Virus record (IMG/VR): IMGVR_UViG_3300031237_000257
Span: 1 to 56,567 of that record
Strand: one strand, 5' to 3'
DNA length: 56,567 nucleotides
Source: a virus
The notes beneath the pieces are model-generated. The model saw only the letters and a program-made list of their open reading frames with translations, did not search any database and was not told the DNA's origin. Below are positions 38,392 to 56,567 of the stretch, one piece after another. Numbering within the stretch: the first letter of the stretch is position 1; the number at the start of each line of letters is the position of its first letter. The position numbers and the translations under genes are program-made.

Positions 38392-39198
38392 TCAGGCCTT
38401 CCCGACCAGTTTGGCCAGTTCGAGGAAGCGATCCACGTACCAGTGAGGTTGCGTCTCGCGAGGAGATTGAGGATTGGTCAAATTCTTGCCGAAACGAAGG
38501 CCCTGCTCAGTCACAGACCAGAAGTCGACCATTTCCTGCTTGGAGTTTTTGCGCTGGAGCTGCTTGAGGAAGCCCTTGGCAGCTAGTGCGCGATTGAACG
38601 CTGCCGGCGCGTAGCGGATGTCGTTGTCCTTCAGCAAGGCCGTGGCCGACTTGGTAGGCATCGAAGAACCGCCAGCAGCATCTGGCGCGGCGTCGACGGC
38701 GTAGCCTGGGAGAAACTTCGGGTCCAAGCCGTTGTTCTGGGCGATCTTCGTGAGCATGGCCATCTGGCAAGATGGCGCGGGCTTCAGTAGGCGCGTGAAG
38801 CACTCCATGATGGCGATCTCGCCGACGACCTTGGTGCCATTGAGCAGAACCTGCTCGCGGGCGCCCTGCTGCTGTTCCAGCTCGCGCCACCGGCGAATCA
38901 CCTTCATGCGCAGCGGCGCGCTGTAGCCGGTGAGCAGGCAGTCGGTGTGCTCGCGATCCAGCATGTACTCGACTTGCTCGCGGTTCTGGCCATCCAGATA
39001 GATGTGCTCAAAACTGAGTACATCTAAATTCAGTTCTTTTAGCATCGCCGTGATGTCGCGCTTCACGTTGGCGTGCCGCTTACCGGTGACGTTGGCGATC
39101 TCACGGGAAGACATCGTGGTACGCGACACGTTTTCCGAATTAACAAAACGTGTCGCGACATTGAAAGGGGGATTGCTTGAATTAGGTTGGCTCTGCAT
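38392..39198 (-). CDS. Rha-family regulatory protein
   Basis: The ATG at 39198 (MQSQPNSSNPPFNV) follows TGAGG, giving 268 residues. The N-terminal domain (MSSREIANVTGKRHANVKRD then FEHIYLDGQNREQVEYMLDR) is the Phage_pRha pattern, with the classic GYSAPLRMKVIRRWRELE. A C-terminal DNA-binding-like part follows. Rha proteins control lysis-lysogeny behaviour in several phages. Here it follows the CII-like gene and precedes replication. Confidence 0.88.
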   Translation of the reverse strand: MQSQPNSSNPPFNVATRFVNSENVSRTTMSSREIANVTGKRHANVKRDITAMLKELNLDVLSFEHIYLDGQNREQVEYMLDREHTDCLLTGYSAPLRMKVIRRWRELEQQQGAREQVLLNGTKVVGEIAIMECFTRLLKPAPSCQMAMLTKIAQNNGLDPKFLPGYAVDAAPDAAGGSSMPTKSATALLKDNDIRYAPAAFNRALAAKGFLKQLQRKNSKQEMVDFWSVTEQGLRFGKNLTNPQSPRETQPHWYVDRFLELAKLVGKA

Positions 39199-39226
39199 AA
39201 TCGGCCTCATTGAGTGGTGTCGAATT

Positions 39227-39263: not shown

Positions 39264-39686
39264 TCAGGCAGCCTTCACCGATGCATCCATCACGTCCAGG
39301 CTCTGCCGGACATGGTTGATCTCTTGGCGAATCAAAGATTTTTCGAACGTGCTGACGTGGTCATCGCCGAGCGCTTCGTGCACGGCGATAGTCAGATCAG
39401 CCACTTCCTTGCCGACATTGATCAGCGAATTGGTCAGCGCTTGAGGCTGGGGGGCAGACTTGGCGATCAGGTCGAAACCGAATTCATTTGCGAGCGCTGC
39501 CAGAGGGCGCATGTCGCCGGTGTGCAGCAAGATCCCAAACAGGTGCTCCACGGTCAGGTGGTGAGCATCGTTGTCGGGGTTGGCGCGCTGGAGCAGGCCA
39601 ACGTGTGGCACCCCCATCTTCGCCGCCAATGCTTTGGCCTCGTTATCCAGAACAGCGCTTTGGCAGGCCCGCAGAAAATCTTCCAT
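39264..39686 (-). CDS. CII-like regulator (CP76 family)
   Basis: The 140-residue protein reads as the phage regulatory protein CII/CP76 family: MEDFLRACQSAVLDNEAKAL, LLQRANPDNDAHHLTVEHL and TNSLINVGKEVADLTIAVHE. It probably steers the choice of lysogeny, acting on early promoters. It is the second gene of the left operon after Cro, the place of cII in lambda. GAGG lies upstream of the ATG. Confidence 0.82.
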   Translation of the reverse strand: MEDFLRACQSAVLDNEAKALAAKMGVPHVGLLQRANPDNDAHHLTVEHLFGILLHTGDMRPLAALANEFGFDLIAKSAPQPQALTNSLINVGKEVADLTIAVHEALGDDHVSTFEKSLIRQEINHVRQSLDVMDASVKAA

Positions 39687-39769: not shown

Positions 39770-39985
39770 ATGACCACTCATTCCGAATTACAGGGCGAGA
39801 TAGCCGCCCTTTGCTGCTTGGTGGTTGCCTTGGCGTCCACCCTTCCCTTGTCATCACAACTCAGGCTGTGGCGAGCGTTTGAGCGAGCTGCCGGACCATT
39901 CCGGGAAGTGCTTGGTTGCGAAGAGTTGCGCGGTTTTGAGCGCGCAACCGTCTTGCTCGCGTCGAGGCGAGCAAAGTTGAGTTAG
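39770..39985 (+). CDS. Small protein antisense to the cro-CII gap
   Basis: The 71-residue frame MTTHSELQGEIAALCCLVVA has AGGGA eight bases before the ATG and fills the 295-base space between cro and the CII-like gene on the other strand, overlapping the last codon of cro. The first half is hydrophobic-helical and the second amphipathic and basic. I believe similar small genes recur at this place in Pseudomonas prophages, but I cannot give a function. Confidence 0.5.
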   Translation: MTTHSELQGEIAALCCLVVALASTLPLSSQLRLWRAFERAAGPFREVLGCEELRGFERATVLLASRRAKLS

Positions 39986-40161
39986 GCGGCCTGCTCTTTT
40001 TTAATCGCTTTGAACTTTCCCCTGGAGAGGACTTGAATTTGGTACTGGCGGGATTCGGGAATAGTTTCCCCCCACATAGTCACTGCACTCGGACGGATGC
40101 CCAGCGCCAGTGCCAGCTTTGTTTTGTTGCCGAAGAATTCGGCCACTTCATGCGTATTCAT
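39982..40161 (-). CDS. cro: Cro repressor
   Basis: This 59-residue gene begins MNTHEVAEFFGNKTKLALAL. The helix-turn-helix continues GIRPSAVTMWGETIPESRQY, and the end is basic (SRGKFKAIKKEQAA). The pattern of a short N-terminal helix, then SAVxxWG and IPESRxYQIQ, is that of Cro proteins of Pseudomonas and enteric phages. It should bind the six operators and turn down CI and early transcription. The promoter is at 40189-40217. Confidence 0.9.
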   Translation of the reverse strand: MNTHEVAEFFGNKTKLALALGIRPSAVTMWGETIPESRQYQIQVLSRGKFKAIKKEQAA

Positions 40162-40187: not shown

Positions 40188-40263
40188 AATTTCAGCATGC
40201 TTAATTTAATGAGTCAACGAGCTTTTCCGACTACTGCATGCTTAAATTCAGTTAACTTAATAT
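40188..40263. promoter_or_regulatory. Operator triplet between cro and cI
   Basis: Three 20-base sites share AATTTCAG-CATG-CTTAAATT-type dyad symmetry. They are 40188-40207 (AATTTCAGCATGCTTAATTT), 40229-40248 (GACTACTGCATGCTTAAATT) and 40244-40263 (AAATTCAGTTAACTTAATAT), the last two overlapping by five bases. This is the layout of lambda OR. Confidence 0.85.
40189..40217 (-). promoter_or_regulatory. Cro (early left) promoter
   Basis: Minus strand -35 TTGACT (40212-40217) and -10 TGAAAT (40189-40194) are 17 bases apart. The -10 and spacer lie inside the first operator, so repressor binding there would shut it off. Confidence 0.7.
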
Positions 40264-40270
40264 TGGGTCC
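40258..40270 (+). promoter_or_regulatory. cI maintenance promoter -10, leaderless start
   Basis: TAATAT at 40258-40263 lies eight bases before the cI ATG at 40271, which would place the transcript start at or next to the A of the ATG. There is no ribosome binding site before the start codon. Lambda PRM also makes a leaderless cI message. Confidence 0.5.
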
Positions 40271-40924
40271 ATGGAAAGACACGAACGTATTGCCCGAGCC
40301 ATCAAGCTCAGCGGGAAAAAGAAAGGCGAAATCGCTGCGCTTTGTGGCGTCGCAAATTCGGCCGTCACTCAATGGATTTCGGGGGAAAGCAAAAGTCTTC
40401 GGCCCGAGAACCTTTACGCACTGGCAAAAGCGACCGGGTTCAGGCCTGAGTGGCTTGCGATCGGTGAGGGAGGTGAGCGTGAGTTGGCGGACTCAAATGT
40501 CGGCGAAGCCCGGCAGCCCGTAGAATCCTTCCGCTACCCGGTTATCAGTTGGGTCGCCGCCGGTGCTTGGGCCGAAGCAGTCGAGCCCTACCCTACTGGC
40601 TTCTCAGACCGCTATGAGTTCTCCGAGTACGATTCCAAGGGTCCGGCCTTCTGGCTGGAGGTTCGAGGAGACTCGATGACCTCGCCGGTTGGCCAGAGCA
40701 TCACGGAAGGAACGCTGATCCTGGTCGACACTGAGGCCGATGCGACTCCAGGCAAACTGGTGATCGCCAAGCTTCCAGAAAGCAACGAGGCCACATTCAA
40801 GAAGCTGGTGAATGACGGCGGTCGGCTGTACCTCAAGCCGCTGAACCCTAGTTACCCGATCGAAGTTTTCGACGAGCGCTGCCGGATCGTTGGGGTGGTG
40901 GTGCGAGCGCTTCAGAAGTTTTAG
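40271..40924 (+). CDS. cI: CI repressor (S24 self-cleaving)
   Basis: The 217-residue protein has an N-terminal helix-turn-helix (residues about 17-38, KKGEIAALCGVANSAVTQW) and a C-terminal S24 peptidase. The self-cleavage site is Ala97-Gly98 in SWVAAGAWAEA. The nucleophile is Ser135 in GDSMTSP, and the general base is probably Lys177 in ATFKKLV, 42 residues on, as in lambda CI and LexA. RecA filaments should trigger cleavage, so the prophage is expected to be induced by DNA damage. It should bind the two operator triplets and repress both early operons. Confidence 0.94.
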   Translation: MERHERIARAIKLSGKKKGEIAALCGVANSAVTQWISGESKSLRPENLYALAKATGFRPEWLAIGEGGERELADSNVGEARQPVESFRYPVISWVAAGAWAEAVEPYPTGFSDRYEFSEYDSKGPAFWLEVRGDSMTSPVGQSITEGTLILVDTEADATPGKLVIAKLPESNEATFKKLVNDGGRLYLKPLNPSYPIEVFDERCRIVGVVVRALQKF

Positions 40925-40985
40925 TTGGGCGGAAGGCTTAGTAGGAGCGTGGATCTCCGAGTTGGAGAGTCATCAGGAGTGCGGC

Positions 40986-41294
40986 ATGGCAGATCAAGAA
41001 AATCCCGAGGCGATAACCGAAGCGGATGTTACGTTCACGGTTCACGAATTTATGCAGTACCTGGCGAACGTTGGGCGATCCGACAAATGCCCTGTCTGCC
41101 CCCACCAAGGAGAGTGGGTGTTTCACACGACCCTTGAAAATGAGGAAGTGCTCATCGTCCACCTCATCCAAAAAGCAAGCAACAGCCAGGAATACACTCC
41201 TGTAGCGACAATGGAATGTCCCAGGTGCGGATTTATCTCCCAAACGAGCCTGATCGCAGTGAAAGATCATTTTGTCACGGTGAGGGCGCGATAA
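40986..41294 (+). CDS. Zinc-ribbon protein behind cI
   Basis: The ATG at 40986 (MADQENPEAITEAD) follows AGGAG and gives 102 residues. Two Cys pairs, DKCPVCPHQGEW and MECPRCGFIS, are spaced as a zinc ribbon. It lies 61 bases after cI in the same direction and is joined stop to start with the next gene, so it may be expressed from the prophage. A zinc-ribbon protein expressed in lysogens could be a transcription or RNA-polymerase-binding factor, or an immunity accessory; this is inference. Confidence 0.65.
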   Translation: MADQENPEAITEADVTFTVHEFMQYLANVGRSDKCPVCPHQGEWVFHTTLENEEVLIVHLIQKASNSQEYTPVATMECPRCGFISQTSLIAVKDHFVTVRAR

Positions 41295-41903
41295 ATGACT
41301 GAGCTGAAGCTTGTATCTGATCGCACCAAGTCGGGAAGCTGGACCTCTACAGCGACGACGTCCAGCTACGCTCAGTTTTCATCCATTGGGCCCGAGGACG
41401 CAGCGATGCTCAGGAAGTTCTTAGCTGAGAACGAGGCGCCTAACGTTTTTCCTGAGCCAACTGATCAGATCAGCGAAGACGTGGACACCTTATCCGGTCA
41501 GAGCCATAATCAGCCGATGACAGACATCACCGATTACCGTAACGAACTCAAGTTCAGAGATGAATCTCTTCGCCGGGAGCTAGACTTGCGCCAGGAGTCT
41601 TTTCGGTCTGAGCAAGCTATCCGCGACAAGGCGCTTGATGAAAAATTTGCCGGTTTTCTAGCTGTTCAGGCAGAGCGCGATAAGCGCCTGGATGGCTCAC
41701 TTACAGCAATTCATGATGACATTTCTCGGCTTGGCAGTCTGAAATTGAGCATCTGGGGTGCGATGTTTACAGGCCTTGCAATCACTCTTACGGTTATTGG
41801 GCTTGGAATTACTTCTTACCAAGCAGGACAGACAGACAGGCGTCCTCCTGTGGATGCTCCCCGCGCAGAGGCAAGTCAAGCGCCCCCAGTAACACCAAAA
41901 TGA
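41295..41903 (+). CDS. Coiled-coil protein with C-terminal membrane span
   Basis: The 202-residue protein starts immediately after the previous stop codon. Residues about 75-140 form a charged coiled coil (DESLRRELDLRQESFRSEQA), followed by one membrane helix near 150-174 (LSIWGAMFTGLAITLTVIGL) and a proline-rich tail. The layout of a cytoplasmic coiled coil plus a short outward tail is shared by several exclusion proteins, but the sequence shows no named domain. It is likely expressed in the lysogen with cI. Confidence 0.65.
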   Translation: MTELKLVSDRTKSGSWTSTATTSSYAQFSSIGPEDAAMLRKFLAENEAPNVFPEPTDQISEDVDTLSGQSHNQPMTDITDYRNELKFRDESLRRELDLRQESFRSEQAIRDKALDEKFAGFLAVQAERDKRLDGSLTAIHDDISRLGSLKLSIWGAMFTGLAITLTVIGLGITSYQAGQTDRRPPVDAPRAEASQAPPVTPK

Positions 41904-41905
41904 AG

Positions 41906-41930
41906 AAGCCCGCCGAGTGCGGGCTTTTTT
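41906..41930 (+). terminator. Terminator of the cI operon
   Basis: AAGCCCGC-CGAGT-GCGGGCTT is followed by TTTT on the plus strand, just after the stop codon of the coiled-coil gene. Confidence 0.85.
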
Positions 41931-42016
41931 ACGTCTGCAGAAAAGACGTGTGCGTTTTGTTTACATATTTCTAGCGACTGCCCTTCGACTATTGCGCAAT
42001 TCTACCTAGCCAAATA

Positions 42017-42032
42017 CTGTATATACATACAG
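42017..42032 (+). promoter_or_regulatory. LexA (SOS) box of the DUF1654 gene
   Basis: CTGTATATACATACAG is a consensus LexA operator located 20 bases before the gene start, in position to overlap its promoter. The flanks TACTG...CAGTA match the site at 1960-1975. Confidence 0.85.
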
Positions 42033-42051
42033 TAACAGCAAGGAGCTTTGC

Positions 42052-42303
42052 ATGCCTCAACCCACTCCCCGCACAACAATAAAAACATCGTCCTATGAGC
42101 TGGCCGGACGTCGTATTCAAAAACTCATCGCCGCACCAGGTGTGCAGAAGGCTCAGGCCATCACAGTATCCAGGCTTGAGCATGAGTCCGCCGAGGATTG
42201 GCAACGCCTCATCGATGAGATCAGCGAGACGGCGGGCGTAATGGTTGAGGCGTTAGACGGCGGCGAAGTCAGGATCGGATGGCGACAATACTGCGAAGCG
42301 TGA
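42052..42303 (+). CDS. DUF1654 protein under LexA control
   Basis: The 83-residue protein (SSYELAGRRIQKLIAAPGVQ, HESAEDWQRLIDEISETAGV, VRIGWRQY) has the DUF1654 pattern, a family nearly confined to Pseudomonas and its phages. AAGGAG precedes the ATG, and a LexA box lies upstream, so the gene should be switched on by DNA damage independently of CI. It has its own promoter and terminator. Possible roles are DNA repair support or nuclease control during induction; the mechanism is unknown. Confidence 0.85.
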   Translation: MPQPTPRTTIKTSSYELAGRRIQKLIAAPGVQKAQAITVSRLEHESAEDWQRLIDEISETAGVMVEALDGGEVRIGWRQYCEA

Positions 42304-42307
42304 GAAG

Positions 42308-42335
42308 AGCCCGCCCGCCAGTGAGCGGGCTTTTT
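42308..42335 (+). terminator. Terminator of the DUF1654 gene
   Basis: AGCCCGC / GCGGGCT with a ten-base loop is followed by TTTT, just after the stop codon. Confidence 0.85.
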
Positions 42336-42345
42336 ATCGATCATA

Positions 42346-42410
42346 AATTTCAGCATTCTGAATTTATTTATTCAGCATACTTGACACAATAATTTCAGCT
42401 TGCTTAAATT
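42346..42410. promoter_or_regulatory. Operator triplet before the early right operon
   Basis: Three 20-base sites, 42346-42365 (AATTTCAGCATTCTGAATTT), 42368-42387 (TTATTCAGCATACTTGACAC) and 42391-42410 (AATTTCAGCTTGCTTAAATT), match the cro-cI operators at most positions. This is the second CI/Cro target, as OL in lambda. Confidence 0.85.
42381..42409 (+). promoter_or_regulatory. Early right promoter
   Basis: A consensus -35 TTGACA (42381-42386) and a -10 TTAAAT (42404-42409) are 17 bases apart. The -35 lies in the second operator and the -10 in the third, so CI binding would block it. Confidence 0.8.
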
Positions 42411-42775
42411 TGTCTCAAGCCAACGCATCACCGGCCCAGCAGCGAAAGCTGCGCCGCTCTTTAACAGTCAGAAATCTTCGCGGATCGATCCCCGGCAACG
42501 GGAAGCCCTTAAGGCATCGCTGGCAACAGCGAACAGCGCGAAACACAAATTTCGATCTCCATGCAGGCTCTGGAACCTGCCGGACTCCCCTCATGGGAGG
42601 ACGCCAAACCATGCAAGCCAGCCGGCGAATAACACCGAACACGAAATGTGTGACGCCGGCCAGGTGGGGAAACCGCGGCGACGCGTATGGGGCGGATAGC
42701 AACACGGAATTTTTCACTGATGCACCCAGCTGCAGTTCGGTCGGGTGCATTGGGAAAACAACCGGAGGCAGAAAG
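42411..42775 (+). ncRNA. Structured leader of the early right operon
   Basis: About 365 bases with no convincing gene, holding a GCAGC-GAAA-GCTGC tetraloop hairpin (42439-42452), a boxA (42455-42466) and further hairpins at 42563-42580 (GCAGG/CCTGC), 42585-42599 (CTCCC/GGGAG) and 42720-42750 (ATGCACCC/GGGTGCAT). An in-frame ATG at 42611 behind GGAGG could start a longer version of the next gene. I read it mainly as a regulatory leader. Confidence 0.6.
42439..42466 (+). promoter_or_regulatory. rrn-like antitermination element (hairpin plus boxA)
   Basis: CGCTCTTTAACA (42455-42466) matches the bacterial boxA sequence of ribosomal RNA leaders. A stem with a GAAA loop (42439-42452) precedes it, in the boxB-boxA order of rrn leaders and not the boxA-boxB order of lambda nut sites. 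It lies just downstream of the early right promoter. Confidence 0.7.
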
Positions 42776-45375: not shown

Positions 45376-45428
45376 CTCCCCTTTCCATCTTAAGGCCGAC
45401 CGACTCCTTGCCGGCCACGGAGAGCGTA

Positions 45429-46418
45429 ATGAACGACTCAGACACTCAAGCACCAACTGGGATCGCCACCTACCACGACCCATCGCACAACGCTGCAGCG
45501 CTCATTCTCGACCCGGGCACCATGAAGTCGATGAGCGACCTCGCGTTGATGATGTCGAAAGGCGTGACAACGGTTCCCAAGCATTTGAAAGGCAATCAGG
45601 CTGACTGCATGGCGGTAGTGCTGCAAGCAATGCAGTGGCAGATGAACCCTTTCGCGGTTGCGCAGAAGACGTTCATCGTCAACGGCGGAGCATTGAGCTA
45701 CGAGGCGCAGCTTGTCAACGCAGTGATCACCGCGAAGGCACCAGTCAAAGGTCGCTTGAACTTCGAGTGGTTCGGTGCCTGGGAAAACGTCATCGGCAAG
45801 ATGCGCGAAGTCACCAGCAAAACCAAGAAGGACGAGGACACCGGTGAGTTCAAAAAGTACCGCGTTCCGGCTTGGAGCTTTGACGACGAAAAAGGTCTCG
45901 GGATCAAGGTCTGGGCAACTTTCAAAGGTGAAGACGAGCCGCGCACTCTAGAGCTTCTGCTTACCCAGGTGCGCACGCGGAACTCTACGCTTTGGGCTGA
46001 AGACCCGAAGCAGCAGATCGCCTACTTAGTGACGAAGAAATGGGCGCGACTCTTCTGCCCTGACGTCATCCTCGGCGTCTATACACCCGATGAATTCGAA
46101 GACTCGTACGGTGGAGAAATCGACATCACCCCTGTGAAGCAAGCTGCGAACACTGCGGCCGCGTCCAGCGTTTCCTTCGGCCCGAAATCCCCATCGCCGG
46201 AAATCGACGGGGTATTCGTAGACCTTTTGGCCGTGGCGAAGCAGCAGGACATTGAAGCCTATGCCACTGCTTGGGCAGGTCTCAAGCCGAAGCAGCGCGC
46301 GGCGATCGGCCTAGAGTGCCATGAAGCGCTCAAGGCCATGGCGGCAACTGTTGATGGCGACTTCACCGAAATCACTGGCAACCACGAAGGCCTGTCTCAG
46401 GCCGAGGAAGCGGCGTAG
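45429..46418 (+). CDS. RecT-family single-strand annealing protein
   Basis: The ATG at 45429 (MNDSDTQAPTGIATYH) follows GGAGA and gives 329 residues. The core, ADCMAVVLQAMQWQMNPFAV, and QKTFIVNGGALSYEAQLVNA, with a C-terminal QQIAYLVTKKWARLFCPDVI, is the RecT pattern. It should anneal DNA ends resected by the exonuclease encoded next, forming the phage recombination pair. The last base of its stop codon is shared with the exonuclease start. Confidence 0.92.
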   Translation: MNDSDTQAPTGIATYHDPSHNAAALILDPGTMKSMSDLALMMSKGVTTVPKHLKGNQADCMAVVLQAMQWQMNPFAVAQKTFIVNGGALSYEAQLVNAVITAKAPVKGRLNFEWFGAWENVIGKMREVTSKTKKDEDTGEFKKYRVPAWSFDDEKGLGIKVWATFKGEDEPRTLELLLTQVRTRNSTLWAEDPKQQIAYLVTKKWARLFCPDVILGVYTPDEFEDSYGGEIDITPVKQAANTAAASSVSFGPKSPSPEIDGVFVDLLAVAKQQDIEAYATAWAGLKPKQRAAIGLECHEALKAMAATVDGDFTEITGNHEGLSQAEEAA

Positions 46419-47080
46419 TGAGAACGGAACTTCAGGGCACTGAAAAGTGGCATGCGGACCGATCTGGCCGAGTGACAGCCAGCCGGTTTAAAGATGTGAT
46501 CGCCTGGGGGAAGCCTGACAAAAATGGGAAGCGCGAGCCGATGGGGGCTCGCACCTCATACATGCGCGAGCTTTGCTTCGAGCGACTGGCGAAGAAGTCC
46601 AAGCACAACGTCAGCAGCGCATCCCTGAAATGGGGTCACACAGAGGAGCAGAAGGCTCAGGATGCCTACGAGATGTTGACGGGCAACATCGTCGTGCCGT
46701 CAGAGTTCATCGTCCACCCGAAGTACGACTGGCTCGGTTGCTCACCAGACGGCCTTATCAACGATGACGGAGGCACCGAGTCGAAGTGCCCATTCAATGA
46801 AGCGATTCACGTCAGGACATGGCTCGAAGGCATGCCTGAGGAACACATGCCTCAGGTTCAGGGCTGCATGTTCGTTACGGGCCGGAAATGGTGGGACTTC
46901 CTGTCGTTCGATTCTCGCCAAGATGAAGAGTGTCAGCTCTACATCGAGACGATTTACCGCGACGAAGATTACATCGCCAACCTGCACAGAGAGTTGGTCC
47001 AGTTCAACCTGGAATTGAATCGCATGGTTGATGAGGTAGCGGACAAAGCCAGGGCGCAGGCCCACCGTTTAGGAGCTTGA
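46418..47080 (+). CDS. YqaJ/lambda-exonuclease-type nuclease
   Basis: The frame starts at a GTG overlapping the RecT stop by one base and encodes 220 residues. YqaJ signatures are present: TASRFKDVIAWG, the active-site GCSPDGLIND and ESKCPFNEAIHVRTW (E-x-K), and MPQVQGCMFVTGRKWWDF. It should digest the 5' strand of double-stranded ends and hand 3' tails to RecT. Confidence 0.92.
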   Translation: MRTELQGTEKWHADRSGRVTASRFKDVIAWGKPDKNGKREPMGARTSYMRELCFERLAKKSKHNVSSASLKWGHTEEQKAQDAYEMLTGNIVVPSEFIVHPKYDWLGCSPDGLINDDGGTESKCPFNEAIHVRTWLEGMPEEHMPQVQGCMFVTGRKWWDFLSFDSRQDEECQLYIETIYRDEDYIANLHRELVQFNLELNRMVDEVADKARAQAHRLGA

Positions 47081-49552: not shown

Positions 49553-50503
49553 ATGCCTACTCACAACATCGTCAGCATAAGCGGCGGTAAAGACAGCACG
49601 GCTACGTTGCTGGTCGCCCGCGAGCTGGAGGTGCCGAACCTCAGCGCTGTAGTGGCTGACACCGGGCATGAGCATCCAGAGACGTACGACTACATCCACT
49701 ACCTGGCTGAAGCTACCGGTGTTCCCATCCGGTGGGTGAAGGCGGACTTCTCCAGACAGATCGCCGGAAAACGCAAATTCATCGAGACGAAATGGCGCGA
49801 AAAGGGTGTGGCGGAATCCGTGGTGCTGGGTGCTTTGGAAGTTCTGCACCCTACAGGCAACCCGTTCCTGGACTTGTGCCTGTGGAAAGGCCGATTCCCC
49901 AGCACCAAGGCGCGCTTCTGCACCGACGAACTCAAGCGCAACCCAATCATCGAGCAGGTCTACCTGCCACTCATGGACGGCGAGAACATGCTGCTGTCTT
50001 GGCAAGGTGTGCGGGCTGATGAGTCGCCGGCCCGGAAGTACCTACCAGAGTGCGATGAGGTTGGAGGCGGTCTATTCAACTACCGGCCGATTCTGAAATG
50101 GACTGTCGATTCGGTGTTCGAAGCTCACCGGGCGGCAGGCATCAAGCCTAACCCCCTGTACTTAAAAGGCTGCAATCGAGTGGGGTGCATGCCATGCATC
50201 ATGTGTGCAAAAGATGAACTCAGGCAGATAGCCGCCAGGTGGCCAGACGAAGTTGACCGGGTGCGTGAGTGGGAGCGACTGGTGAGCATCGCCAGCAAGC
50301 GCGGAGCGGCTACGTTCTTCGCCACCGTCACCGACCCCACCGTCCGGTCAGATGACAAGGTCAGCGCCGTCACGCACGGAATTGACCGGATAGTCGATTG
50401 GAGCAACACCGCTCGCGGTGGCCGCCAGTTCGACATGGTCGACCTGATTGCGCGCACCGACAGTCAGAACAGTTGTTCTTCGGCCTACGGGCTTTGCGAG
50501 TGA
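49553..50503 (+). CDS. PAPS-reductase-family PP-loop protein
   Basis: The 316-residue protein has a PP-loop, SISGGKDSTATLL (residues 8-20), and FSRQIAGKRKFIETKWREKG. It also carries a four-cysteine cluster (GCNRVGCMPCIMCAKDE, about residues 205-221) that could hold an iron-sulfur cluster. PP-loop enzymes of this group activate a substrate by adenylation for sulfur transfer. In phages such genes often sit next to DNA modification genes, as here with the methyltransferase. It could thiolate nucleic acid or help sulfate metabolism; which is not shown. Confidence 0.82.
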   Translation: MPTHNIVSISGGKDSTATLLVARELEVPNLSAVVADTGHEHPETYDYIHYLAEATGVPIRWVKADFSRQIAGKRKFIETKWREKGVAESVVLGALEVLHPTGNPFLDLCLWKGRFPSTKARFCTDELKRNPIIEQVYLPLMDGENMLLSWQGVRADESPARKYLPECDEVGGGLFNYRPILKWTVDSVFEAHRAAGIKPNPLYLKGCNRVGCMPCIMCAKDELRQIAARWPDEVDRVREWERLVSIASKRGAATFFATVTDPTVRSDDKVSAVTHGIDRIVDWSNTARGGRQFDMVDLIARTDSQNSCSSAYGLCE

Positions 50504-51205: not shown

Positions 51206-52129
51206 ATGCCCACAGCAATCGATTTATTCGCCGGTCTCGGCGGATGGTCAACCGGTGCCCGCAATGCCGGCATCGATGTTATCTGGGCGGCCAACCACTG
51301 GCCGGTCGCCGTCGAATGGCACAGCGCCAACCACCCGCAAGCGATACATATCTGCCAGGACCTGCACCAGGCTGATTGGTCGAAAGTGCCGGCCCACGAC
51401 ATCATGCTGGCATCGCCGTGCTGCCAAGGTCATTCGAAGGCCCGCGGCAAGAAGTCAGGCAATGCGCAGCACGATGCATCCCGCTCGACAGCATGGGCCG
51501 TGGTTTCTGCTGCTGAGTACCACAAGCCGGAAGTAGTGCTGGTCGAGAACGTCGAAGAATTCACTGATTGGGCGCTGTACCCGGCCTGGTCGCAGGCCAT
51601 GGCGGCGCTTGGCTACATGATTGCGCCGCACGTAGTTGACTGCGCAGACCTCGGCGTTCCCCAGCACCGCGTGCGGCTATTCCTGGTCTGTACCCGCAGT
51701 AAGTCGCCGCTGATGCTCGAGCTGCACCGTCGCCAGCACGTTCCGGCCGCCAGCTTCCTTCAGTTCGATGCGGGGCGCTGGTCTGCGATAGAGAAACCCG
51801 GCCGGGCGCAAGCAACCCTCGACAGGGTACGCAACGGCCGAGAGCGCTTCGCCGATCAATTCATCATGCCCTACTACGGCAAAGGCTCAGGGCTGACCGG
51901 CCGCGATATCAACCGCCCGATCGGCACCATCACCACGCTTGACCGATGGGCGCTGGTCCGAGGCGACGAGATGCGAATGCTGTCGGCGAATGAGGCATTG
52001 GCCGCAATGTCATTCCCGGCCGACACGAAGCGCCCGGACAATCACCGGCTGACCATGCACATGGCCGGCAATGCAGTGCCACCGCTGGCCGGACAGCGGA
52101 TTATTGAGGCACTGAAGGCTGCTGCTTAG
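51206..52129 (+). CDS. DNA cytosine-C5 methyltransferase
   Basis: The 307-residue protein has the C5 motifs in order: I DLFAGLGGWS (residues 6-15), IV ASPCCQGHS with the catalytic Cys72 after Pro71, VI ENVEEF (114-119), VIII QHRVRLF (153-159) and X GNAVPP (288-293). There is no matching restriction gene nearby. In phages such enzymes protect their DNA from host restriction. The short region between motifs VIII and IX holds a small target recognition domain whose specificity I cannot predict. GAGG precedes the ATG. Confidence 0.95.
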   Translation: MPTAIDLFAGLGGWSTGARNAGIDVIWAANHWPVAVEWHSANHPQAIHICQDLHQADWSKVPAHDIMLASPCCQGHSKARGKKSGNAQHDASRSTAWAVVSAAEYHKPEVVLVENVEEFTDWALYPAWSQAMAALGYMIAPHVVDCADLGVPQHRVRLFLVCTRSKSPLMLELHRRQHVPAASFLQFDAGRWSAIEKPGRAQATLDRVRNGRERFADQFIMPYYGKGSGLTGRDINRPIGTITTLDRWALVRGDEMRMLSANEALAAMSFPADTKRPDNHRLTMHMAGNAVPPLAGQRIIEALKAAA

Positions 52130-55098: not shown

Positions 55099-55518
55099 AT
55101 GTCTGCAGAACTGGCGCAGGCGCCCTCCCGGCCCCGGCGCGAAAACATCCTTCCCCGATTCATCCGCGCCGGTGCCGCGCCTATCTACTTGGGCATGTGC
55201 CGCGCCGAGTTCGACAAAACAGTCCGCCCTTATGTCAGCGAGTTCCCGATCGGCGAGCGCGGTGTTGGCTTTGACCGGGAAGAGCTCGACGACTGGGCCA
55301 CGGCCTACGTCGCAGCGAAGGCAATTGATAAACATGGCGCTTCGGAGCAACAATCGCCCCGCAGCGAGCGCCAGAAAGGAGATAAATCATGGCGCGAAAA
55401 TCGATCACAGGCCTCTCCGAGAGGAAAGGTATCTGGCATATCGACAAGAAAATCAACGGAGAACGACTTTACGAAAGCACTGGAACTGGTGACCGGGAAG
55501 AAGCGGAGCGCTACCTGA
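55099..55518 (+). CDS. Excisionase-like DNA-binding protein
   Basis: The ATG at 55099 follows GGAG. The 139-residue protein contains LPRFIRAGAAPIYLGMCRAE, then FDREELDDWATAYVAAK, the pattern of AlpA/Xis-like winged helix proteins. The end is basic and low-complexity (ERQKGDKSWRENRSQASPRG). Its last 130 bases overlap the integrase start. It should set the direction of recombination by bending DNA at the attachment site. Confidence 0.75.
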   Translation: MSAELAQAPSRPRRENILPRFIRAGAAPIYLGMCRAEFDKTVRPYVSEFPIGERGVGFDREELDDWATAYVAAKAIDKHGASEQQSPRSERQKGDKSWRENRSQASPRGKVSGISTRKSTENDFTKALELVTGKKRSAT

Positions 55519-56567
55519 TCTACCGGCTGGAGCAGATCCGGCAACAGAAGGTGTACGGCGTAAAGAAGGTCAGGATCTGGCGGGAGGCGGCAACTCGCTT
55601 CCTGCTGGAGTTCAAGGATCAGCCTTCAATCAAGCTTTCGGCGCACCACCTTTCCCAGCTGGACCCGTTCATAGGCGACATGCCGCTGACCCACATTGAT
55701 GACCAGGCCCTCGTGCCGTTCATCAAGGACAGGTTGGCCACCAAGAAGCTTGATGGCGGCAAGGTGAAGAAAGGCGTCAGCAACAGGACGGTGAATATCT
55801 CGATCGAGCGTGTGGTTCGGGTGTTGTCGTTGTGTGCCAGAAAGTGGCGAGATGATGAGCGCAGGCCGTGGCTAGAAAGCGTGCCGATGCTCACGAAACT
55901 GGAAGAGAAGAAGTCGAGCCGCAAACCGTACCCGATGTCATGGCCAGAGCAGTCGATTCTATTTGCGGAATTGCCGGCTCACCTGCAAACGATGGCACTG
56001 TTCAAGGTGAACACCGGCACGCGAGAGCAGGAAGTCTGCAAGCTGAGATGGGAATGGGAGATTTCAGTGCCAGAGCTCGGGACTAGCGTTTTTCTGATCC
56101 CGGCGGACTTTGGCGGCAGACACGAACGGTCTGGAGTGAAGAACGGTGATGAGCGACTGGTCGTGCTCAACAGCGTGGCCAAATCGATCATCGAGCAGCA
56201 GCGCGGCCTGAGCAAGGATTGGGTTTTTCCTTACAACGGCAACGCAATGCACCGGATGAACGACTCAGCCTGGAAGAAGGCGCGGGTGAGAGCGGCGAAA
56301 CTCTGGCAGGAGGAAAACCTTCGCCCCGCTCACCCAGGTTATGCATCCATTAGGATCCATGACCTCAAACACACATTTGGCCGCCGGCTGCGCGCAGCAG
56401 GCGTAACCGAAGAAGACCGCAAGGCGCTTCTGGGCCACAAGAACGGCAGCATCACCAGTCATTACTCCGGCGCTGAGCTCGGGCATCTGATTGAAGCTGC
56501 GAACATGGTATCAGCAACCGATTCGCGTGGACCGGTCCTGACAATCTTGAAGAGGAAGCAGGCGTGA
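55389..56567 (+). CDS. int: Tyrosine integrase
   Basis: The 392-residue protein has an N-terminal arm/SAM-like domain (residues 1-160) and a catalytic domain with Arg212 (TGTREQEVCKLR), the HxxR position as H324-D-L-K327 (Lys in place of the second Arg), His350 in LLGHKN and the nucleophile Tyr359 in SHYSG. It follows GGAG before the ATG. The stop is the last base of the window, so the adjoining attachment site is not seen. It should integrate and, with the excisionase, excise the prophage. Confidence 0.92.
   Translation: MARKSITGLSERKGIWHIDKKINGERLYESTGTGDREEAERYLIYRLEQIRQQKVYGVKKVRIWREAATRFLLEFKDQPSIKLSAHHLSQLDPFIGDMPLTHIDDQALVPFIKDRLATKKLDGGKVKKGVSNRTVNISIERVVRVLSLCARKWRDDERRPWLESVPMLTKLEEKKSSRKPYPMSWPEQSILFAELPAHLQTMALFKVNTGTREQEVCKLRWEWEISVPELGTSVFLIPADFGGRHERSGVKNGDERLVVLNSVAKSIIEQQRGLSKDWVFPYNGNAMHRMNDSAWKKARVRAAKLWQEENLRPAHPGYASIRIHDLKHTFGRRLRAAGVTEEDRKALLGHKNGSITSHYSGAELGHLIEAANMVSATDSRGPVLTILKRKQA

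What the first reader, a model, noticed from the sequence alone, without database searches (positions are those of the whole stretch)
40188..42410. Six 20-bp operators in two triplets, a complete OR/OL-like immunity switch
The sites at 40188, 40229, 40244, 42346, 42368 and 42391 share a dyad built on AATTTCAG-CATG-CTTAAATT. Three sit between cro and cI and three cover the early right promoter. The cro promoter and the right promoter each have promoter elements inside operators. A self-consistent CI/Cro circuit can thus be read from sequence alone, with a DUF1654/SOS gene and a cI-linked two-gene cassette lying between the clusters.
Basis: partly seen in the sequence, partly recalled or inferred. 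Interest (0 to 1): 0.78.

Follow-up and report, generated by a model that had tools for sequence, protein, structure and literature searches.

The report
Lambda-type immunity switch, Pseudomonas prophage
The repeats are the repressor-binding sites of a lambda/D3-style on-off switch in a Pseudomonas prophage, conserved in dozens of relatives with the repressor that reads them, and between them sits an uncharacterised two-gene unit where lambda keeps its phage-exclusion genes.

Summary
The sites are real. All lie in two clusters: 40188-40263 between cro and cI, and 42346-42410 over an early promoter. Four are strong (40188, 42346, 42368, 42391) and are the four best motif matches in the 56.6-kb contig. 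40229 and 40244 rank only 10th and 6th by score and overlap by 5 bp, but their halves are kept in about 60 of 61 relatives.

Comparison of 80 viral-contig relatives supports a CI/Cro switch. All 64 non-redundant relatives with this repressor head carry the OR site; 49 have an OL triplet, mostly 22/23 bp apart, over TTGACN/TTAAAT. Relatives with other CI/Cro recognition helices on a similar CI tail carry other operators at both clusters; one such class matches phage D3.

Corrections: the 'right' promoter corresponds to lambda pL (recT, YqaJ exonuclease downstream), and OR is not an evenly spaced triplet.

Constant parts: a LexA box before a DUF1654 gene (48/49), a terminator and usually a boxA. 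The cI-DUF1654 interval is a cargo hotspot that includes RexA and other defence-like genes. This contig's cargo, a four-cysteine protein plus a coiled-coil/membrane protein, recurs behind unrelated phage repressors and matches no model of known function.

The switch is a new member of a known kind; the cassette is the least-known part.

The parts
38392..39210 (-). Rha/Ant-type phage regulator gene, two genes downstream of cro
   Evidence: Pfam Phage_pRha 4.1e-14; PHROG anti-repressor Ant 1.5e-20
39264..39686 (-). CII-like regulator gene (Phage_CP76)
   Evidence: Pfam PF06892 1.2e-25
39982..40161 (-). cro, 59 aa, recognition helix PSAVTMW
   Evidence: Pfam P22_Cro 2.1e-18
40188..40207 (.). Strong OR site (core 40191-40204), covers the pR -10
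   Evidence: 0 mismatches to core; best matrix score in contig; kept in 64/64 relatives
40189..40217 (-). pR (cro promoter): TTGACT-N17-TGAAAT
   Evidence: Read from sequence; the consensus scanner did not list it
40229..40248 (.). Weak OR site (core 40232-40245), one good half; left half may instead be part of the pRM -35
   Evidence: Rank 10 by score; right half kept in 60/61 relatives
40244..40263 (.). Weak OR site (core 40247-40260), overlaps the pRM -10
   Evidence: Rank 6 by score; kept in 60/61, with symmetric change TTCAGTTAACTTAA to TTCAGCTAGCTTAA in some
40258..40263 (+). Putative pRM -10 (TAATAT); start would fall at or next to the cI ATG, i.e. near-leaderless cI mRNA
   Evidence: Read from sequence, inference
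40271..40924 (+). cI, 217 aa, HTH plus S24 self-cleavage domain
   Evidence: Pfam Peptidase_S24 6e-27 and HTH_3; nearest solved chain is lambda CI, with Ser, Lys and Ala-Gly site aligned
40986..41294 (+). Cassette gene 1: 102 aa, two CxxC pairs (zinc-ribbon-like)
   Evidence: Four Cys and one Trp invariant in six relatives
41295..41903 (+). Cassette gene 2: 202 aa, charged coiled-coil-like region plus a hydrophobic segment near the C end
   Evidence: Family of ten aligned
41906..41931 (+). Terminator-like hairpin after the cassette
   Evidence: Sequence; scanner lists the same stem on the other strand
42017..42032 (.). LexA box CTGTATATACATACAG
   Evidence: Present at this position in 48/49 relatives with OL
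42052..42303 (+). DUF1654 gene, 83 aa
   Evidence: Pfam PF07867 3.3e-21; same position in relatives
42313..42335 (+). Terminator between DUF1654 and OL
   Evidence: pattern kept in 48/49
42346..42365 (.). OL3 (core 42349-42362)
42368..42387 (.). OL2 (core 42371-42384), overlaps the pL -35
42391..42410 (.). OL1 (core 42394-42407), holds the pL -10
42381..42409 (+). pL: TTGACA-N17-TTAAAT
   Evidence: TTGACN and TTAAAT at these places in 49/49 relatives; a variant spacing found by scanner
42439..42466 (+). Leader hairpin GCAGC-GAAA-GCTGC followed by boxA-like GCTCTTTAACA
   Evidence: boxA pattern in 42/49 relatives
45408..47080 (+). recT and YqaJ exonuclease genes, downstream of pL
   Evidence: Pfam RecT 6.4e-38, YqaJ 1.1e-24

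Best explanation
This is the immunity region of a temperate Pseudomonas phage, built like lambda's and like that of Pseudomonas phage D3. CI dimers hold the strong OR site (40188) to shut pR (cro, cII-like gene, replication) and hold OL1-OL3 to shut pL (recT, exonuclease). The two weak OR sites over pRM most likely let CI and Cro limit cI transcription. Cro, whose recognition helix resembles CI's, binds the same operators in the lytic phase. DNA damage acts twice: RecA-stimulated self-cleavage of CI, and loss of LexA from the DUF1654 gene. The two genes behind cI are probably transcribed with it in the lysogen, as lambda rexAB are. Shown here: the sites, their conservation, their co-variation with CI/Cro, the gene order, the LexA box. 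Inferred: binding, regulation, co-transcription, the role of DUF1654.
For: Matching operators in both clusters, specific to them contig-wide. 64/64 non-redundant relatives keep the OR site; 49 have OL triplets, spacing 22/23 in 43, TTGACN and TTAAAT in all 49. Exact-block searches of IMG/VR return only this setting. Natural test of specificity: on a similar CI C-terminal domain, heads with CI helix EQPVISQL and Cro SQAAVSYW go with ATAAG-N4-CTTAT at OR (23/24-bp spacing) and OL (25 bp); heads with TQTSISDL and DQSTVSGW go with TATGGG-N4-CCCATA at both; D3 has helices of that last class and annotated 14-bp operators ATGGGAATACTCAT. CI is nearest lambda CI among solved structures, with catalytic residues and cleavage site aligned. 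Pseudomonas genomes carry close relatives.
Against: No binding or transcription data. OR in this group is irregular (centres 41 and 15 bp apart) against 23/24 in sister groups. The register of the middle site is unresolved: many relatives have a better match six or seven bases upstream, overlapping it. No site sits where lambda OR2 contacts polymerase at pRM, so positive autoregulation is doubtful. OL counts are conditional on a motif search; 15 of 64 relatives had no OL found, several because the held sequence ends first.
Confidence: 0.9

Rival explanations
1. The OR cluster is really a two-operator region: one strong site (40188) plus one composite element (40229-40263) that is mainly the pRM promoter with a single weak operator; the 40229 site is not bound as a dimer site.
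For: 40229 and 40244 overlap by 5 bp; 40229 scores low; its conserved left half CTGCA can be read as part of the pRM -35, since TTGCAA lies at the comparable place in the sister classes; OL in two sister classes and in D3 shows only two sites.
Against: The right half TGCTTAA is kept in 60/61 relatives although a promoter need alone would not demand that half-site; some relatives have a good dyad shifted six or seven bases.
Confidence: 0.45
2. CI binds these operators but Cro mainly uses others or only a subset, so the circuit is not a lambda-like CI/Cro competition.
For: Single-operator Cro binding is reported for the telomere phage PY54 (title and abstract of PMC4488713); Cro binding is not testable here.
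Against: CI and Cro recognition helices resemble each other and change together across the operator classes.
Confidence: 0.15
3. The dyads belong to a host regulator or are chance AT-rich repeats.
For: A few one-mismatch matches occur elsewhere in host chromosomes.
Against: The perfect core lies at immunity loci in the genomes searched; exact longer blocks occur only at cI and after DUF1654; the sites change with CI/Cro class.
Confidence: 0.02

Closest known systems
Pseudomonas aeruginosa phage D3 immunity region (NC_002484)
   Same: Divergent cI and cro-type gene with 14-bp operators between them (annotated in the record), second operator group over a TTGACA promoter beyond cI, terminator before it and boxA after it; recombination genes on that side.
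   Different: Different operator sequence and CI/Cro recognition helices; D3 OR sites are 24 bp apart and its OL has two sites found; no DUF1654 gene and no cargo gene annotated between cI and OL.
Phage lambda OR/OL switch with rexAB
   Same: Order cro - OR - cI - two genes - OL - early recombination operon; CI C-terminal domain is nearest lambda CI among solved chains.
   Different: Cro is of the P22_Cro family; DUF1654 with a LexA box stands between cargo and OL; OR spacing irregular; the two cargo genes match no RexA/RexB model.
Pseudomonas phage BUCT566 and kin (NC_074664)
   Same: Same CI head class (APSAVTQW) and Cro (RPSAVTQW), near-identical operators, OL triplet 22-23 bp apart.
   Different: OL follows cI directly, with no DUF1654 gene and no cargo; operators carry small base changes.
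Pseudomonas phage PS-1 (NC_029066)
   Same: cI - four-cysteine protein - coiled-coil/membrane protein - LexA-box-like site - DUF1654 - early operon with boxA-like site.
   Different: Unrelated repressor head, different Cro (YdaS-type), other operators.
RexAB of P. putida prophage P1 (PMC12894663)
   Same: Two-gene unit near a prophage CI-like repressor, one soluble protein and one membrane protein, shown to give phage defence.
   Different: No detectable sequence relation of our pair to a RexA model; function of our pair untested.

Membership tests
Lambda/D3-type OR-OL immunity switch | Divergent cro and S24-type cI with operators between them | tested here: met
Lambda/D3-type OR-OL immunity switch | Same operator class at a second early promoter beyond cI, driving recombination genes | tested here: met
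Lambda/D3-type OR-OL immunity switch | Early promoter elements lie inside operators | tested here: met
   pL both elements, 49/49 relatives; pR only the -10
Lambda/D3-type OR-OL immunity switch | Operator specificity follows the CI and Cro DNA-binding heads | tested here: met
   Three classes plus D3 and BUCT566
Lambda/D3-type OR-OL immunity switch | OR made of three evenly spaced operators | tested here: not met
   Centres 41 and 15 bp apart; even in sister classes. I treat even spacing as typical of the family rather than defining; if it is held to be defining, the claim is 'works like', not 'is'.
Lambda/D3-type OR-OL immunity switch | CI and Cro bind the sites; CI cleaved on SOS induction | not testable with these tools
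   Catalytic Ser, Lys and Ala-Gly site aligned with lambda CI
Lambda/D3-type OR-OL immunity switch | Nut-type leader with boxA after pL | tested here: met
   boxA GCTCTTTAACA at 42456; pattern in 42/49 relatives; an N-like protein was not identified
RexAB exclusion system (the two cargo genes) | RexA homology | tested here: not met
   No RexA match for gene 1 or gene 2; a relative has a true RexA gene in the same interval
RexAB exclusion system (the two cargo genes) | Soluble plus membrane protein directly behind the prophage repressor | tested here: met
   membrane character judged from hydrophobicity only
RexAB exclusion system (the two cargo genes) | Excludes superinfecting phages | not testable with these tools
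   Needs plaque assays

The most novel reading that the evidence does not exclude
The two genes behind cI (40986-41903) are an undescribed phage-exclusion system that works like RexAB but is not homologous to it: a small four-cysteine sensor paired with a coiled-coil membrane effector, kept on lysogen transcripts by riding behind many unrelated phage repressors. In 300 Pseudomonas genomes, 17 of 18 hits to gene 1 are followed at once by a coiled-coil/membrane protein of one of two kinds, and 8 have an S24 repressor within the 1.5 kb held upstream; five viral relatives of gene 2 with other repressors all follow an S24 repressor.
Probability: 0.45. Interest if true: 0.7.

Novelty: new member of a known kind. 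Interest (0 to 1): 0.45.

Why it matters
The Pseudomonas relatives form a natural experiment: similar CI C-terminal domains joined to at least three DNA-binding heads, each with its own Cro helix and its own operator in both clusters. That gives a testable recognition code and predicts which prophages share immunity. The interval between cI and DUF1654 is a marked place to look for prophage-encoded defence genes, and the four-cysteine/coiled-coil pair found there matches no model of known function. A LexA box before DUF1654 kept in 48 of 49 relatives suggests a second, RecA/LexA-driven arm of prophage induction whose product has no known role.

Tried and rejected
DUF1654 fold: AlphaFold2 model of moderate confidence (pLDDT 76), no significant match in the PDB (best E 0.26), so no function can be read from it.

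A canonical OR2 midway between 40188 and 40244 (core at 40213): no match (score -15).

The idea that cassette gene 2 is always prophage-linked: rejected for the wider family. Most distant hits in 300 genomes lie in chromosomal settings without an S24 repressor found in the held flank; the link holds for close viral relatives and for the pair with gene 1.

Invariance of OR columns in 'close' relatives was partly circular, because that group was chosen by the motif; it was redone on 61 unselected relatives.

Searching viral contigs with the gene 1 alignment failed: no conserved stretch. Full text of the original D3 immunity-region paper was not in the library; D3 was compared from its annotated record instead.

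Full report
What was checked. The six 20-mers are at the stated positions. The common element is a 14-bp core, TTMAGCATGCTKAA, with half-site TTMAGCA. In the 56,567-bp contig the only five 14-mers within two mismatches of it lie in the two clusters. With the 20-bp consensus, four sites have at most four mismatches, all in the clusters, and none appeared at that level in 30 Markov-simulated contigs. A half-site matrix trained on relatives ranks 40191, 42394, 42349 and 42371 as the top four positions; the cores inside the sites called 40244 and 40229 rank 6th and 10th. Those two cannot be claimed from this contig alone.

Relatives. A CI search of IMG/VR returned 325 relatives, of which the best 80 were kept. 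They fall into heads of three classes on a similar C-terminal domain. Class A, the contig's own, has CI helix ANSAVTQW and Cro helix PSAVTMW. Among 64 non-redundant class A loci all 64 keep the site 80 bp before cI. In 49 an OL triplet was found, with spacing 22/23 bp in 43, a -35 of TTGACN and a -10 of TTAAAT in all 49, a LexA box in 48, a terminator in 48, DUF1654 in 45 by clustering, and a boxA pattern in 42. The OL count depends on a motif search, so two reverse searches were run. The exact OR block occurs in 49 stretches of viral contigs, all 6-7 nt before a class A cI. The OL2-OL1 block occurs in 36; 35 directly follow DUF1654 and the other is cut by its contig end. Close relatives of the CI in bacterial genomes are in Pseudomonas.

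Specificity. Class B loci (CI EQPVISQL, Cro SQAAVSYW) carry ATAAG-N4-CTTAT at OR (three sites, 23 and 24 bp apart) and at OL (two sites, 25 bp). Class C loci (TQTSISDL, DQSTVSGW) carry TATGGG-N4-CCCATA at both. Phage D3, whose record annotates three 14-bp operators, belongs with class C by helix (DQTSISN, DQSTVSGW), by operator (ATGGGAATACTCAT) and by position (-74, -50, -26; a pair at +1013 and +1038). BUCT566 is a slight variant of class A with an OL triplet directly after cI. So the operator at both clusters changes with the CI and Cro heads. This is the main evidence that the dyads are CI/Cro operators; binding itself was not measured.

Where this OR differs. In the sister classes and in D3 the OR sites are evenly spaced. 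About half of the unselected relatives have a loose match (three mismatches allowed) in a register six or seven bases upstream of the middle site, a few of them nearly perfect; in this contig that version is poor. The conserved CTGCA of the middle site may instead serve the pRM -35. The third site is supported by symmetric paired changes, TTCAGTTAACTTAA to TTCAGCTAGCTTAA. No site sits where lambda OR2 activates pRM, so I infer that CI mainly limits its own promoter. The pRM -10 (TAATAT, 40258-40263) would start cI mRNA at or next to its ATG, as in lambda; this is inference.

Orientation. cro and the CII-like and replication genes run left; recT and YqaJ genes run right from the 42346-42410 promoter. 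The right-hand promoter is therefore the counterpart of lambda pL, not pR. Its leader has a hairpin followed by GCTCTTTAACA. CI has an S24 domain nearest lambda CI among solved chains, with the catalytic residues and the Ala-Gly cleavage site aligned.

SOS arm. DUF1654 ends 39-48 bp before OL3 in the relatives where it was located, and a CTG-N10-CAG box lies at one fixed distance before it in nearly all. DUF1654 goes with all three head classes, so if it acts on CI the likely target is the shared C-terminal domain; this is a proposal. Chromosomal DUF1654 paralogues in Pseudomonas also have LexA boxes. The predicted fold has no significant match in the PDB.

Cargo. The distance from cI to OL3 runs from 1.1 to 5.4 kb. 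The short form holds only DUF1654; the long forms hold different genes, 104 of 159 protein clusters being seen in one locus only (mechanical ORFs, some spurious). They include RexA, AriA-like and PD-Lambda-5-like ATPases, RmrA-like proteins and a cytosine methyltransferase. A P. putida prophage RexAB near a CI-like repressor has been shown to protect against phages (PMC12894663). In this contig the cargo is a 102-aa protein with two CxxC pairs and a 202-aa charged, coiled-coil-like protein with a hydrophobic segment. No Pfam model reached its cut-off and no PADLOC or NCBIfam model matched either of them; gene 1 has weak PHROG hits only, the best to a family of unknown function. Close relatives of the second protein found without reference to the repressor all follow an S24 repressor of another kind (5 of 5). 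In 300 Pseudomonas genomes the first protein is followed by a coiled-coil/membrane protein in 17 of 18 hits (two of the 18 are identical copies in one genome) and has an S24 repressor within the 1.5 kb held upstream in 8. Phage PS-1 shows the same order with an unrelated repressor. The wider gene 2 family also has chromosomal members without such a repressor nearby. I judge a phage-exclusion role about as likely as not.

Verdict. The switch is a sound new member of the lambda/D3 kind with its own operator class.

Noticed in passing
L104-L109 (P. syringae-group chromosomes), e.g. L105:7001-8610: A class A cI without cro, with DUF1654 (intact in five of the six checked) and OL-type operators directly before a holin-like gene, at a shared chromosomal site. 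cI is under strong purifying selection (dN/dS about 0.01-0.07, several dS values above 1), which suggests a domesticated, SOS-controllable holin unit. At 91% identity or more the cI was in 4 of 120 Pseudomonas genomes.
   Followed up: partly
Interval cI-DUF1654 in L006-L085: Cargo hotspot with RexA, AriA-like and PD-Lambda-5-like ATPases, RmrA-like proteins, cytosine methyltransferase and many unknown genes.
   Followed up: partly
L166-L169 (Pseudomonas chromosomes): Host DUF1654 paralogues with LexA boxes upstream, so DUF1654 may be a general Pseudomonas SOS family.
   Followed up: partly
window 42439-42466: Hairpin with GAAA loop followed by boxA GCTCTTTAACA after pL, kept in many relatives with a C-G to T-A pair change in some. 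No N-like antiterminator gene was identified.
   Followed up: partly
window 38392-39210: Rha/Ant-type regulator gene behind the CII-like gene; possible antirepressor.
   Followed up: no
window 49553-50503 and 51206-52129: PAPS-reductase-like and DNA methyltransferase genes on the right side of the prophage.
   Followed up: no
window 55389-56567: Integrase gene at the very right end of the contig, in line with a temperate phage.
   Followed up: no
L026, L089: The coiled-coil/membrane gene has a different partner of about 110 aa here instead of the four-cysteine protein, so the pair seems modular.
   Followed up: partly
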